The notes below the pieces were generated by a model. The model saw nothing but the letters and a program-made list of their open reading frames with translations, searched no databases and had not been told where the DNA came from. From the NCBI GenBank assembly GCA_013287275.1, contig JABDED010000007.1:1-64000 (forward strand): DNA of 64,000 nucleotides. Direction: 5' to 3'. This document shows positions 10,809 to 26,697 of this stretch, piece after piece (positions within the stretch are counted from its first letter, which is position 1; every line of letters starts with the position of its first letter). Made by a program: the position numbers and the translations under genes. This DNA comes from Betaproteobacteria bacterium (GTDB lineage: Bacteria > Pseudomonadota > Gammaproteobacteria > Burkholderiales > Burkholderiaceae_D).

Positions 10809-12755
10809 TCAGGTGGAGTTCATTTTAGCCAGGCTGGTCGACCAACTGGCATCCCAGGTTTTGAACTGCTCAGCCGGAATCGGTGCGCTGATCAAATAGC
10901 CTTGGGCAATGTCACATCCCAGACTTGCCAGCAAGTCCCAGCTAGCCCGGCTCTCCACGCCTTCGGCAACAACCTCCAGTCCAAGATTGTGGCCCAATTC
11001 TATCGTCGAATGCACAATGACGGCAGAATCGTGGCTCTCGGTCATGGGGATGACAAAAGACTGATCGATCTTGATTGCATCCACCGGCAGCTTTTGCAGA
11101 TAGCTGAGGCTGGAATAGCCTGTCCCAAAGTCATCGATGAACAGTTTACTGCCAAGGGATTTTAGCTGGGTCAGGGTTTCCAAGGCACTGGCCGGGTCTT
11201 CCATCAAGGCGCTTTCGGTGAGTTCGAACTGAATAGTCTCCGCAGGAATGGGGTAGGTAGAGAACAGGCCTCGTATCCGGTTTATCAGTTCGGGATCGCG
11301 CAGGTCGTGTGCTGAAAGATTGACCGACAGTTCACGATCCAGTCCCATCCGATGCCAGTCATGGCTTTGGCGAAATGAGGCTTCCAGCACCCAGTTGGTG
11401 AGCGGTGAAATCAAGCCCGCGTGTTCGGCGAGCTTGATGAATTCACTGGTGGAAATCATCCCATAGACGGGATGCTTCCACCTGACCAGGGCTTCCGCGC
11501 CGCATACTTTTCTGGACGAAATCACCAGTTTTGGCTGGCAATACAGCATCAGTTCGTTCTGCGCGATGGCGCGGCGCAAGTCGCCCATCAAGGACAGCTG
11601 GCGGGTGTTCCGCTCTTCCTGCCCCCCGGTATACATTGCATACCCGCCCCAGATTGGCTTGGCATTGCGCATCGCTGCATTGGCGCGCCTCAGCAAGGTG
11701 TCCGGCGTAGTGGCGTGATCCGGGAACAAGGCAATACCGATGGTGACGCTGGCGTCCACGCTGAGACCGGACACCTCTACGGGATGGTGCAGTAGGGCCG
11801 ACAGCCGCTGGGCCGTCTGCAGCGCATAATCGGCGCCGCCGGTGGGCAGCAATAATGCAAATTCCGCTTCTCCTACGCGTGTCAGCGTTTCGTTTTCTTT
11901 CACGGTTTCGGTCAGGCGGCGGCCCAGTTCGCTCAGCAGCTCATCCCCCGATTTATAGCCCAGGACTTTGTTGATTTCATCAAAGCGGCCAACTTCCAGG
12001 TGCAGCAAGGCGAGGGGCTGGCGCAATTGCCTGGCAACCTGTATTGCAGCGTCCAGCAACTCCAGCAGAAAAGTACGGTTCGGCAAACCGGTCAGCGTGT
12101 CGTAGTAGGCTAAGCGTGCAATGATGGCTTCTGACTCGCGGTGCCGGTTTCGCACGCGCAGGTTGGCGATGCCATAGCCGAGGTCGGCGGCGAGCTGGTT
12201 TAGCAGGCTGACCTCATCCTGGTGGAAGGCATCCGGTTCTGCCGCGCCCAGGCCAAGTGCGCCAAATACTTCTCCGTCTATGCTGAGTGGGAAAGCACTT
12301 ATAGAGGCAAATCCTTTTTTGACAGCCTCTCCCCGCAACGGCGCAAAGTTCGGCCCGGCATATGCCGGATCGGTGAGGATATTCCTGCCTATGCTGGCTT
12401 TGCCGGTACGAATCGCGGTTCCGATACCCGTGCGTCCAAGTTCCGTGTCGGCCCAGGTGGAGTGCAGGGTATTGAGCAGGTCTTTATCGATACCGACACA
12501 CTCCATCCACTGGACAGACTTGTTTTCATCGTGTTGCGCATAGCCGACGCATGCCTGGCGATAACCGCCATGCTCGACGATAACCCTACACATCTCCTTC
12601 AGCAGCTCGGTTTCGGAGGTGGCCCGCAACAGGCTGCGATTGACCTCGCTCAAGGTCCTCAGAGCCCGATTAACGCATCCTTGCCTCAAGGGTTCTTCCA
12701 TCACCGGCGGAATACCGGAGGGTTTGTTCATTGAAGCATCAGCATGGTATGCCAT
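10809..12755 (-). CDS. GAF-GGDEF-EAL cyclic-di-GMP phosphodiesterase
   Basis: About 648 residues: GAF sensor (about 55-190), GGDEF domain (about 205-365) and EAL domain (about 375-630). The GGDEF site is degenerate (Val-Gly-Glu-Ala-Glu-Phe), so cyclase activity is unlikely. The EAL domain looks active: Glu-Ala-Leu-Val-Arg-Trp, Asn-Leu-Ser near residue 480, Asp-Asp-Phe-Gly-Thr-Gly and Glu-Gly-Val-Glu are all present. It should hydrolyse cyclic-di-GMP under GAF control. A longer in-frame start exists at 12812; 12755 has GGAG eight bases upstream. A c-di-GMP riboswitch elsewhere in the window (26.2 kb) shows the organism uses this second messenger for gene control. Confidence 0.85.
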   Translation of the reverse strand: MAYHADASMNKPSGIPPVMEEPLRQGCVNRALRTLSEVNRSLLRATSETELLKEMCRVIVEHGGYRQACVGYAQHDENKSVQWMECVGIDKDLLNTLHSTWADTELGRTGIGTAIRTGKASIGRNILTDPAYAGPNFAPLRGEAVKKGFASISAFPLSIDGEVFGALGLGAAEPDAFHQDEVSLLNQLAADLGYGIANLRVRNRHRESEAIIARLAYYDTLTGLPNRTFLLELLDAAIQVARQLRQPLALLHLEVGRFDEINKVLGYKSGDELLSELGRRLTETVKENETLTRVGEAEFALLLPTGGADYALQTAQRLSALLHHPVEVSGLSVDASVTIGIALFPDHATTPDTLLRRANAAMRNAKPIWGGYAMYTGGQEERNTRQLSLMGDLRRAIAQNELMLYCQPKLVISSRKVCGAEALVRWKHPVYGMISTSEFIKLAEHAGLISPLTNWVLEASFRQSHDWHRMGLDRELSVNLSAHDLRDPELINRIRGLFSTYPIPAETIQFELTESALMEDPASALETLTQLKSLGSKLFIDDFGTGYSSLSYLQKLPVDAIKIDQSFVIPMTESHDSAVIVHSTIELGHNLGLEVVAEGVESRASWDLLASLGCDIAQGYLISAPIPAEQFKTWDASWSTSLAKMNST

Positions 12756-12926
12756 CACTACCGCTCCAGTACGCATAATAATGCTTTTATTATAAGCAGC
12801 ATGGCGGCGCATATCTAGGCAATCTTAGGTCGCAGGCTGGCCAGACGCTTGGCAAGACATAAAGAAAAAGATATTCACGATGTTTAACAGATTTCATTGA
12901 TCTATTTTTGATACATTAGGATACAA

Positions 12927-23746: not shown

Positions 23747-26137
23747 TTATTTTGCAGTGATGGTGACAGGAACGCTAAGCTGGGCGCTGCGGCCGGCAGA
23801 ATCGACCACCGAGACTTTGAGGCTGTAACTGCCGGTCACAGGGGCGGCCCAACTGACCATCAGATTCAGGCCGTTTGGCGAAAAGCTCATGCCCATCGGA
23901 ATCCCTGAAACGGATATTGAAAGCGAACTGACACCGGGGTCAGAGATGCTGATCATGCCGGTGAGCGCCTTACCCGATACACCGCTCATGGCAGATGCAG
24001 TAATCACCGGGCCAACAGTGGCGGCACCGGCTATCGTCAGCGTATAGACGGCTTGTCCGCTTAGACCGGTTTTGGTGTCTTTGGCAATCACGGTAACTGC
24101 ATAGGTCCCGGCCACAGGCGCGGCCCAGGTGACTTTGCCGGTGCTGCTGATTGTCATGCCAGCGGGCGCGCCGGTTAAAGAGTAGGTCACCGGATTGGCG
24201 TTCGTTACGGAAACGTCGAACGAGAGTGCCGTTCCAGCCTTGCCGCTGACGTTGGCAGGGTTGACAACCGGGGCGCTTGGTGAGGCGATGCTGACGGTGT
24301 AAATGCCCTGGCCGCTCAAGCCTGTCTTGCTGTCTTTAGCTATGACGGTAACAGAATAGCTGCCCGCCACCGGCGTAGCCCAGTTTACGGCGCCTGCGCT
24401 GCTGATCGTCATGCCGGCGGGCGCACCGCTCAATGCATAAGTCACAGGATTAGATGCCGTTACCGAGACGGTAAACGATAAAGCCGTGCCGACCTTGCCG
24501 GTGACGCTGGCTGGAACGACGGCAGGCGGCGTGGCAGCAGGTGCAGCGCCTGACAGCACGCTCAACAGGCTGCCGGCGTTAGGCGTTCCCAGTCCGCTCA
24601 ACGGATCATATCCAATTTTCGCAGTGCAGGTGCCGCAGCTGCCATCCGAACCTTTGGTGATGTCGCTGAACACGCTGGCGTAAGTTCCCGGTACGGTGGA
24701 TATCTGGCCATACAGGATGGAGTGGGGTGCGCCAAGTGCGGATTTTGCGTTCAGCGCGCGGGTGGCGTTTGCAATTGCGATGAGTCCGGCCCATTGCGGA
24801 GTGGACAGGCTGGTGCCGCCGGCGCTGAGCCATTTTACCGTGGAGCTGCCTGACGAAATCACCGCCAGGTACTGGCCGGTATTGGGATCGGCGTTAAAGG
24901 CGACGTCGGCGACATTCCGGCGTGTCACAAAGCCCATGCCGGGCACTGCATTGGTTTGATAGGTGGGCGCTGCAGTATAGGCGCTGGCACCGCCGCCGGT
25001 GCCGGACCAGCTTACTTCGGAGCGGGTGCCGGTGCCGGTGTAGGTCAGCGTCGTGCCGCCTACGGCCACTACGTTGGGGGACACAGAAGGCCATTGGACC
25101 GCTGCTCCGGAATCTCCAGTCGCAGCGAGGTAAGTCATATTGGCGCCAGCGAAAGCGGAATCGACAGAGCCGGTCCAATTGCCTTCTTGCGAACCAAAAC
25201 TCATCGAAACGATTCCCGGCCCCATCGCGTTGGCCAGCTTGACGGCGCCCAGCAGGCTATTCAGCGATGCGTCTGCCGCTTCGATCAGGACGATACGCGC
25301 CAGCGGCGCGGTGGCGTGCACCCATTGCACATCCAGAGCGATCTCCGTAGCCCAGCCGGAATCATAGGCCGGCTTGGTAGAGGTCATCGTGCCACTTGCC
25401 GTGTTATATACCACCGACAGCTCACAGCCGGTGCTGGAGGCAGCCGCGAGAGGCAAGCTCATACTGTTTGAGATCGCTTTTTGCGTGCAGGCAGGCAATC
25501 CGAATTTTTGGTTGAACGCAGTCAGCTCGGCGACCACGTTAGGGTCGTCCATCGCATCGACGATGTAGATGGTTTGCCCTGCACCGAGTTGGGCAGCCTG
25601 CGCTGCGGTAAGCGTCGCCCCTGGGGCCGGCAGTACAGGCAAGCCGTATGCGGCGCGGATCTGCGCGGGAGTATAGGTTGAAATGACGGTGTTCGAAGCC
25701 ATGGGCGTGACGGCGCCATTGGCAGCGGTGCTGTCAGTGCCGGCTCCGCGCATCGCCTGAGCCGCTTCCAGTCGCCGTACAGTCAAGCCGCGTGTGGAGA
25801 GACCTGTCAAAGTGTCTGGCACTGCCTGCATGCGAGGGGCCATGCGCGAGGAGGCCGCGCGGCCGTCGGCATCGATATCGTCCGGCACGTTCAACAGCGC
25901 TGCTGCAACGTGGAACGCCGGTTGCGCAGCCTGCGTTGCAGCGGCATCCGGCAATGCAGGATCAGCCAGTTGGAATGTTGTCGTGCCGCTTGCCAGCGCC
26001 GCCTGGGCCTCGACCTGGGGGCGGCTGGATTGATCGCCGCTTCCGCCGCCGCAAGCACTCAGAAGTGCCGATGCAAAAACCGACAGCAGTAATCCCGTAC
26101 GGGAGATGTTATAGAGACCAGCGGGATTTTTTTTCAT
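23747..26137 (-). CDS. S53 (sedolisin) peptidase lipoprotein with Ig-like repeats
   Basis: 796 residues from the ATG at 26137. A lipoprotein signal (Leu-Leu-Ser-Ala-Cys29) is followed by a linker of about 120 residues and a sedolisin domain. The catalytic residues are Glu265 and Asp269 in Ala-Thr-Glu-Ile-Ala-Leu-Asp, Asp342 in Thr-Gly-Asp-Ser-Gly, and Ser443 in Gly-Gly-Thr-Ser. The end has the Ca-binding style Asp-Ile-Thr and Gly-Leu-Gly-Thr-Pro. Two near-identical repeats of about 90 residues (about 555-645 and 645-735) plus a third partial look like Ig/cadherin-type domains. An in-frame start at 26248 would lie within the riboswitch, so 26137 is preferred. The c-di-GMP riboswitch ties this surface protease to the lifestyle switch. 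Confidence 0.9.
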   Translation of the reverse strand: MKKNPAGLYNISRTGLLLSVFASALLSACGGGSGDQSSRPQVEAQAALASGTTTFQLADPALPDAAATQAAQPAFHVAAALLNVPDDIDADGRAASSRMAPRMQAVPDTLTGLSTRGLTVRRLEAAQAMRGAGTDSTAANGAVTPMASNTVISTYTPAQIRAAYGLPVLPAPGATLTAAQAAQLGAGQTIYIVDAMDDPNVVAELTAFNQKFGLPACTQKAISNSMSLPLAAASSTGCELSVVYNTASGTMTSTKPAYDSGWATEIALDVQWVHATAPLARIVLIEAADASLNSLLGAVKLANAMGPGIVSMSFGSQEGNWTGSVDSAFAGANMTYLAATGDSGAAVQWPSVSPNVVAVGGTTLTYTGTGTRSEVSWSGTGGGASAYTAAPTYQTNAVPGMGFVTRRNVADVAFNADPNTGQYLAVISSGSSTVKWLSAGGTSLSTPQWAGLIAIANATRALNAKSALGAPHSILYGQISTVPGTYASVFSDITKGSDGSCGTCTAKIGYDPLSGLGTPNAGSLLSVLSGAAPAATPPAVVPASVTGKVGTALSFTVSVTASNPVTYALSGAPAGMTISSAGAVNWATPVAGSYSVTVIAKDSKTGLSGQGIYTVSIASPSAPVVNPANVSGKAGTALSFDVSVTNANPVTYSLTGAPAGMTISSTGKVTWAAPVAGTYAVTVIAKDTKTGLSGQAVYTLTIAGAATVGPVITASAMSGVSGKALTGMISISDPGVSSLSISVSGIPMGMSFSPNGLNLMVSWAAPVTGSYSLKVSVVDSAGRSAQLSVPVTITAK

Positions 26138-26215
26138 GGCTACAACGCTCCGGTATAGGCGAGGGCCACGCTCAGACAACGCTTGCAAATACGCAGTAAA
26201 TGCAGATCCGCTTAT

Positions 26216-26300
26216 ACGTCGGCAACCCCGCTGCCCTGGCGTTTTCACGCGGTAGGCCGGTGGCTTTGCGTCCCCGCCTTTCGACGGGGTTGCCCTCTAT
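26216..26300 (-). promoter_or_regulatory. cyclic-di-GMP-I (GEMM-I) riboswitch
   Basis: On the minus strand the conserved blocks appear in order: AGGGCAACC, a GC stem with a GAAA tetraloop (CCCCGUC-GAAA-GGCGGGG), GACGCAAAGCCACCGGCCUA, then after a short linker GGGCAGCGGGGUUGCC, which matches the second conserved stem of the GEMM-I class. It is 79 bases upstream of the S53 peptidase start and points at it. I see no clear terminator between aptamer and start, so it may control translation. Most of the 560-base gap between 26137 and 26698 is otherwise AT-rich leader without a gene. Confidence 0.9.
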
Positions 26301-26697
26301 GCTTGAGTAAAGTCCAGCAACAGGCTGGTTTACTGGCGTTTAGTGTAGCAGTAAAGCTTTCCCGGAAACATGGCGAAAGCACGGTGAAAGTTAAATTATG
26401 TTGCGTAAAATAGCTGCTTGATAAGCAAAATTCCATTTTTTTATTGGAACTGTCAACGACTCTTTGCAAAAATGCTTGACGGGGTTTTAATTTTTCGCTA
26501 CGAGGCAATTTCCATCGGCAGAATGGGCAGGAAAAACAACTCTTTATTGTGGCCGCTGCGGGCAGGTATTGCCGCGAAACTGCACGCGGGTACCGCGCCA
26601 GGCTGACGCGAGATCATCTGTTAAACTTGGCTGAAATGAACGTCAACGAGAAGCGCAGAAACCACCACGACGATCTGAAACCGGAATAGACCACCGC

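What the first reader, a model, noticed from the sequence alone, without database searches (positions are those of the whole stretch)
26216..26300. c-di-GMP-I riboswitch controlling a surface S53 protease
The GEMM-I aptamer with GAAA tetraloop, CAAAGCC core and second conserved stem sits 79 bases before the sedolisin lipoprotein start. An S53 protease under c-di-GMP control links secreted proteolysis to the motile/sessile switch. It also settles the start codon.
Basis: partly seen in the sequence, partly recalled or inferred. Interest (0 to 1): 0.7.

Follow-up and report, generated by a model that had tools for sequence, protein, structure and literature searches.

The report
c-di-GMP switch controlling surface protease
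The leader of this surface protease gene holds a genuine c-di-GMP riboswitch, and comparison with dozens of relatives suggests that the signal shuts the protease off by hiding its ribosome-binding site.

Summary
Confirmed. Rfam c-di-GMP-I (RF01051) matches window 26304-26218, minus strand, full length, 82.5 bits (cut-off 35), 80 nt before the ATG of an S53 (sedolisin/kumamolisin) lipoprotein; catalytic residues and lipobox cysteine are identical in 17 of 17 aligned proteins. Linkage is conserved: 56 of 73 close orthologues in the family carry the aptamer, as do 3 of 3 from two other families; the 17 without it share one genus.

New: a shared translational platform. A strand before the Shine-Dalgarno (GCCCUCG) pairs with the aptamer's own 5' strand (UGAGGGC), which holds the presumed ligand-contact G. 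The helix covaries and RNAalifold finds it unaided. The same strand can instead pair with the SD/AUG region. Prediction: protease on at low c-di-GMP, off at high. Direction is inferred, untested. The genome's one other detected aptamer precedes an S8 subtilase; 43 of 78 aptamers in the family sample precede putative exported peptidases. C. difficile PPEP-1 is a functional precedent; I found no report of this platform or the S53/S8 link in ten searches of an open-access library.

The parts
26218..26304 (-). c-di-GMP-I riboswitch aptamer
   Evidence: RF01051, 82.5 bits, model 1-87 of 87
26292..26297 (-). aptamer 5' strand GAGGGC, proposed 5' half of the anti-aptamer helix; holds G12, by spacing the ligand-contact G20 of Vc2
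   Evidence: covarying helix in 34 leaders; contact residues from a passage of PMC4744006
26161..26166 (-). platform strand GCCCTC, complementary to 26297-26292
26165..26169 (-). GTGGC, proposed 5' strand of the SD/AUG-sequestering stem
   Evidence: stem columns 165-169:202-206 of A1, 78.6% paired; forced-aptamer fold; unconstrained fold
26136..26140 (-). GCCAT, proposed 3' strand of the sequestering stem, includes two bases of the start codon
26148..26151 (-). Shine-Dalgarno GGAG, ten bases before the ATG
   Evidence: sequence; conserved in most leaders of A1
23747..26137 (-). S53 (sedolisin/kumamolisin-like) lipoprotein, 796 aa: lipobox C29, E265, D269, D342, S443, C-terminal Ig-like domains
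26395..26424 (-). weak sigma-70-type promoter-like site (9 of 12) upstream of the aptamer
   Evidence: consensus scan only; 2 sites found in the region on both strands against 0.4 expected

Best explanation
A c-di-GMP-I riboswitch that most likely turns translation of the S53 surface protease OFF when c-di-GMP is high. Without ligand, the aptamer's 5' strand (GAGGGC, holding the ligand-contact G12) pairs with GCCCUC just before the SD; this blocks the pocket and keeps that strand away from the ribosome-binding site, so the protease is made. With ligand, the aptamer folds, the GUGGCCCUCGC strand is released and closes a hairpin over SD and AUG. Shown: the aptamer, its conserved linkage, and covariation of the aptamer:platform helix. 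Supported by computation: alternative pairing of the same strand with the SD/AUG region. Inferred: ligand binding, direction, and the biological role (surface proteolysis in the low-c-di-GMP, motile or dispersing state).
For: Aptamer 82.5 bits. Linkage 56 of 73 family orthologues, 53 of 53 outside genus g40, 3 of 3 in two other families. Helix columns 7-13:168-174 of 34 leaders: 93.3% of cells paired against 88.0% shuffled (0 of 500) and 33-54% when slid; 9 cells changed on both sides against 2.3 (0 of 500); found unaided by RNAalifold. Three later-found leaders: two pair, one with one mismatch in seven. SD-to-AUG stretch less accessible with the aptamer forced than with the anti-aptamer helix forced in 29 of 34 leaders (0.42 against 0.55); difference 0.136 against 0.063 when the downstream part is shuffled. 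Aptamer plus sequestor more stable than aptamer plus P1-like helix in 31 of 34. No terminator-like site on this strand.
Against: No ligand or expression data. For the window alone the flank:platform match has shuffle p = 0.11, and only 11 of 56 leaders reach p <= 0.05. The window's unconstrained fold shows the sequestor but not the anti-aptamer helix, and pairs the aptamer 3' strand with early codons. SD alone is less accessible with the aptamer in only 24 of 34. L135 keeps only four pairs of the helix and the outermost pair fails in 11 of 34. The fixed-register sequestor stem shows no excess of pairs with double change (434 of 500 shuffles as high). 17 of 73 orthologues lack the aptamer.
Confidence: 0.67

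Rival explanations
1. ON switch: the GAGG:CCUC helix acts as a distant P1 stem of the ligand-bound aptamer, so c-di-GMP stabilises it, frees the SD and raises protease translation.
For: RNAalifold draws the helix together with P2 and P3. In Vc2 the region just 5' of the pocket contributes to a P1 stem formed with c-di-GMP, and Vc1 is an ON switch (passages of PMC4744006).
Against: The helix extends into G12 and C13, which the bound aptamer uses: platform column 169 is C or U in 34 of 34 and column 168 is G in 32 of 34; but these columns also pair in the sequestor of most leaders, so this is modest. Aptamer plus P1-like helix is less stable than aptamer plus sequestor in 31 of 34, median 2.9 kcal/mol.
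Confidence: 0.2
2. The switch acts mainly on transcription (Rho-dependent termination in an untranslated leader) or on mRNA stability; the SD pairing is secondary.
For: Untranslated leaders are often exposed to Rho (general knowledge); the C. difficile relative CD2830 acts by transcription termination (passage of PMC3649979).
Against: No intrinsic terminator-like site on this strand; the conserved strand involves SD and AUG in the models.
Confidence: 0.08
3. The aptamer binds another cyclic dinucleotide (such as c-AMP-GMP), or has lost regulation.
For: Some GEMM-I variants with A at the position of Vc2 G20 prefer c-AMP-GMP (recalled, no call).
Against: The corresponding G12 is invariant in 34 of 34 leaders, and aptamer scores are 59-90 bits in the 56 orthologue leaders.
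Confidence: 0.05

Closest known systems
C. difficile PPEP-1/ZmpI (CD2830) under c-di-GMP-I riboswitch Cdi1_12
   Same: Same aptamer class before an exported protease made at low c-di-GMP; there the protease cleaves adhesins from the surface (passages of PMC6366702, PMC6447587, PMC3649979).
   Different: Zinc metalloprotease in a Gram-positive, regulated by premature transcription termination; here an S53 lipoprotein in a betaproteobacterium with a predicted translational platform.
V. cholerae Vc1 (gbpA) and Vc2 c-di-GMP-I riboswitches
   Same: Same aptamer class in Gram-negatives, not acting by transcription termination (passage of PMC6366702).
   Different: Vc1 is an ON switch before an adhesin; no anti-SD was apparent and both mechanisms were called unclear or unknown in 2016 (passage of PMC4744006). 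Here a covarying platform helix is seen.
Kumamolisin / sedolisin (MEROPS S53; name recalled)
   Same: Catalytic Glu, Asp, Ser and oxyanion Asp aligned and kept; fold match.
   Different: Lipobox, C-terminal Ig-like domains and a riboswitch leader; the structure model is of moderate confidence (pLDDT 76.3).

Membership tests
c-di-GMP-I riboswitch (RF01051) | covariance-model score above Rfam's gathering score | tested here: met
   82.5 against 35 bits, full length
c-di-GMP-I riboswitch (RF01051) | ligand-contact residues equivalent to Vc2 G20 and A47 | tested here: met
   G12 and A39, mapped by their spacing of 27, invariant in 34 of 34 leaders; contacts from a passage of PMC4744006. C92 was not mapped column by column.
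c-di-GMP-I riboswitch (RF01051) | location in the 5' leader of a gene | tested here: met
   80 nt before ATG 26137, same strand
c-di-GMP-I riboswitch (RF01051) | binds c-di-GMP and alters expression | not testable with these tools
   needs in-line probing and reporter fusions
S53 sedolisin/kumamolisin peptidases | sequence-profile match to solved S53 enzymes | tested here: met
   kumamolisin 7.8e-67, sedolisin 6.6e-41; Foldseek kumamolisin-As 1e-17. Pfam and NCBIfam gave no S53 model.
S53 sedolisin/kumamolisin peptidases | catalytic Glu-Asp-Ser and oxyanion Asp | tested here: met
   E265, D269, S443, D342 identical in 17 of 17 aligned proteins, window included; E and D align with the kumamolisin motif
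S53 sedolisin/kumamolisin peptidases | proteolytic activity | not testable with these tools
   no assay
PPEP-1-like c-di-GMP-controlled surface protease circuit (works like) | protease cleaves surface adhesins of its own cell | not testable with these tools
   substrates unknown

The most novel reading that the evidence does not exclude
A low-c-di-GMP protease regulon in Undibacterium-type bacteria: surface S53 lipoproteins, S8 subtilases and HExxH metallopeptidases each under their own c-di-GMP-I riboswitch, with at least two translational OFF platforms in which a strand of the aptamer (the 5' strand for S53, the 3' strand for many S8) competes with the Shine-Dalgarno for one regulatory strand. 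It would release cells from surfaces, or start extracellular proteolysis, when c-di-GMP falls.
Probability: 0.5. Interest if true: 0.68.

Novelty: new variant of a known kind. Interest (0 to 1): 0.55.

Why it matters
Only a small subset of c-di-GMP riboswitches had been validated by 2019 (passage of PMC6366702), and for the two V. cholerae examples the mechanism was called unclear or unknown in 2016 (passage of PMC4744006). Here a covarying three-strand platform makes direction and mechanism testable with compensatory mutations. If right, the C. difficile logic, in which low c-di-GMP switches on a surface-freeing protease, also exists in environmental betaproteobacteria with unrelated proteases and a different output step.

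Tried and rejected
Transcription terminator between aptamer and gene: the consensus scan of 26080-26560 found one terminator-like site, on the other strand. Chance aptamer match: rejected by score and linkage. Complementarity tested leader by leader is weak (11 of 56 at p <= 0.05, 46 of 56 at p <= 0.2), hence the comparative tests. S8-type pairing of the aptamer 3' strand in S53 leaders: 1 of 19 at p <= 0.05, against 10 of 19 S8 and 6 of 40 other leaders. Flank-type pairing in S8 leaders is mostly short. Single-sequence structure prediction failed (mean pLDDT 44.8); 26 rows gave 76.3. The genome contigs protein scan gave one close relative and three distant ones. PHROGs gave no family.

Literature: ten searches. 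The sedolisin and subtilase searches returned one paper each (PMC9144310, PMC7793685) and the 'c-di-GMP-I riboswitch' plus protease search three (among them PMC11218506); I saw only their listings. The two searches naming Janthinobacterium or Oxalobacteraceae returned none. Passages were seen of PMC6366702, PMC6447587, PMC4744006, PMC12456836 and PMC3649979. The library lacks most subscription papers and did not hold the paper I asked for as the original GEMM description, so absence in print is not shown.

Full report
The thing itself. A whole-window Rfam scan gives one match, c-di-GMP-I (RF01051), at 26304-26218 on the minus strand: 82.5 bits against a cut-off of 35, full model. It lies 80 nt before the ATG at 26137 of a 796-aa protein. 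The ATG has GGAG ten bases upstream and leads to a lipobox (LLSAC, C29); most aligned orthologues start at the corresponding place, a few with GUG or UUG.

The protein. Pfam finds only Ig-like and related C-terminal domains and NCBIfam nothing. phmmer finds tripeptidyl-peptidase 1 (E 3.4e-10), a 26-row profile finds kumamolisin (7.8e-67) and sedolisin (6.6e-41), and the predicted structure best matches kumamolisin-As (Foldseek E 1e-17; mean pLDDT 76.3). E265, D269, S443, D342 and lipobox C29 are identical in 17 of 17 aligned proteins: the window and 16 of the 18 other S53 rows of the first sample, two having been left out as under 600 aa. So it is an S53 lipoprotein by sequence; activity and surface location are not tested.

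Organism. A close relative's contig named 'Undibacterium sp.' (L062) is identical to L123, which comes from genome G318, labelled same genus as the window. NCBI places Undibacterium in Oxalobacteraceae, Burkholderiales. The window's assembly is 56% complete, so counts of its genes are lower limits. It has 37 GGDEF matches and 19 EAL matches over cut-off, so c-di-GMP turnover is present in sequence.

Linkage. Of 392 family genomes, 74 match the protein at E <= 1e-60. I dropped two distant ones (G097, G361), leaving 72 genomes with 73 genes. RF01051 over its cut-off lies upstream in 56 of 73: 19 seen and 37 of the 54 further loci scanned. The 17 lacking it all belong to one genus label (g40), where 3 of 20 have it; outside g40 it is 53 of 53. 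In a tree of 29 rows, the four riboswitch-less rows included form one side of a single branch (support 96/100), so one loss or gain suffices for those. Of 399 genomes sampled from the order, three close orthologues lie in two other families, and all three have the aptamer. Twelve distant S53 homologues of the family (L021-L032) and two of the order (L174, L175) have none in the DNA held, about 1.5 kb each side.

A wider protease link. The family sample of 145 genomes has 78 RF01051 matches, 77 over the cut-off, in 57 genomes. By phmmer 19 precede S53 and 19 precede S8 genes. Five more precede proteins with an HExxHxxGxxH motif; three of these were scanned and match M12 models only below cut-off. 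That makes 43 of 78. Two of the 78 have under 300 nt downstream and cannot be judged. Others precede SLT lytic transglycosylases, DUF4402 proteins, Spherulin4, a chemoreceptor-like protein, FliD, PAS sensors and proteins without a family (not all 35 remaining were scanned). The window genome's second aptamer (C23, 71.3 bits) precedes an S8 subtilase (PF00082, 162.5 bits) with a signal-like start by inspection.

The platform. In the first 19 leaders a conserved GCCCUCG just before the SD is complementary to the aptamer's 5' strand UGAGGGC. From 56 leaders a script kept 34 with under 90% identity; these were aligned as A1. Columns 7-13 with 168-174: 93.3% of 238 cells are paired; with the 3' letters shuffled 88.0%, 0 of 500 as high; slid by 1-3 columns 33-54%. 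Nine cells are changed on both sides against 2.3 in shuffles (0 of 500), four pairs have a double change against 1.6 (5 of 500), and the covariation score is 0.220 against 0.137 (0 of 500); the number of pair types is not unusual (69 of 500). These shuffles do not keep relatedness. RNAalifold, given no hint, predicts 8-13:168-173. Double changes occur in at least four lineages: the three g40 leaders (GAAGGC with GCCUUC or GUCUUC), G276 (CAGGGC/GUCCUG), G065 (UGGGC/GCCCA) and one of two copies in G069 (CCUGGGC/GUCCAGG); G336 and G176 add one at the outermost pair. Exceptions: L135 keeps four pairs, L046 and L012 lose the innermost pair, and the outermost pair fails in 11 of 34. Of three leaders found later, two pair and one (L172) has one mismatch in seven. 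For the window alone, shuffles give p = 0.11.

Why this should exclude ligand. Vc2 contacts c-di-GMP through G20, A47 and C92 (passage of PMC4744006). By their spacing of 27, G20 and A47 correspond to positions 12 and 39 here, both invariant in 34 of 34. The helix uses G12 and C13, so it should not coexist with a filled pocket. This step is inference.

Alternative pairing with the SD. The same strand can close a hairpin over SD and AUG: GUGGC...GCCAU in the window, CUCGCUC...GAGCGAG in several g42 leaders, CUUC...GAAG in g40 leaders, AUCAC...GUGAU in another group (sequences, pairing by inspection; folds). The fixed-register stem 165-169:202-206 is 78.6% paired (shuffled 73.5%, 0 of 500), but pairs with a double change are not in excess (434 of 500 as high) and cells with one only modestly (17 of 500). 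With the aptamer forced, the SD-to-AUG stretch is unpaired 0.42; with the anti-aptamer helix forced, 0.55; lower in 29 of 34, and for the SD alone in 24 of 34. With the downstream part shuffled the difference drops from 0.136 to 0.063 (12 sets, largest 0.078). Computed without ligand, the anti-aptamer state is more stable than the aptamer state in 27 of 34 (median 2.6 kcal/mol), so ligand binding could tip the balance. The ON rival, aptamer plus a P1-like GAGG:CCUC helix, is less stable than aptamer plus sequestor in 31 of 34 (median 2.9). The window's unconstrained fold shows the sequestor but not the anti-aptamer helix; it pairs the aptamer's 3' strand with early codons instead, and its energy is unremarkable (z -1.46).

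S8 leaders. In 10 of 19 the aptamer's 3' strand has a downstream complement at p <= 0.05, against 1 of 19 S53 and 6 of 40 other leaders. In nine of those ten the complementary strand also pairs with a stretch just before the start (ACAGGA or CAGGAC in six, ACAGAAC in three). The window genome's own S8 leader is not significant by that test (p = 0.49), although it has GCAACUCC...GGAGUUGC over the SD of a GUG start. This second platform is a lead, not a result.

Comparison with the known. PPEP-1/ZmpI of C. difficile is under a c-di-GMP-I riboswitch, is made at low c-di-GMP and cleaves adhesins off the surface (passages), with repression by premature termination (passage). The present case works like it in predicted logic but differs in enzyme, organism and output step. 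For V. cholerae Vc1 no terminator or anti-SD was apparent, and the mechanism of Vc2 was called unknown (passage). Ten searches of an open-access library turned up no report of S53 or S8 control by such riboswitches; that does not show that none exists.

Verdict. Aptamer near certain; control of the S53 gene very likely; OFF by SD sequestration the best-supported mechanism at about two in three; ON by a P1-like helix the main rival.

Noticed in passing
window 10809-12812, minus strand: A 667-aa protein with GGDEF and EAL domains (c-di-GMP turnover type) lies in the same window as the riboswitch.
   Followed up: no
L076 (G000:C23:31000-35800); aptamer at C23:34271-34359: Second c-di-GMP-I aptamer of the genome, before an S8 subtilase, with GCAACUCC...GGAGUUGC over the SD of a GUG start.
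   Followed up: partly
L079 (G052:C8) and L088 (G011:C36): Two aptamers per locus: divergent ones between two S8 genes in L079, and two on one strand each before an S8 gene in L088.
   Followed up: no
L067, L077, L078, L114; L068, L074, L115, L116; L103; L092: Other genes behind c-di-GMP-I aptamers in the family: SLT lytic transglycosylases, DUF4402 proteins, a Spherulin4 protein and FliD.
   Followed up: no
window 26110-26310, minus strand: The aptamer's 3' strand AGCGGGGUU can pair with AAUCCCGCU in early codons of the protease; conservation not examined.
   Followed up: no
genus g40, e.g. L122, L124-L126, L151-L153: A group of S53 orthologues without the riboswitch, 17 of 20 in that genus; one change explains the four rows placed in the tree.
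   Followed up: partly
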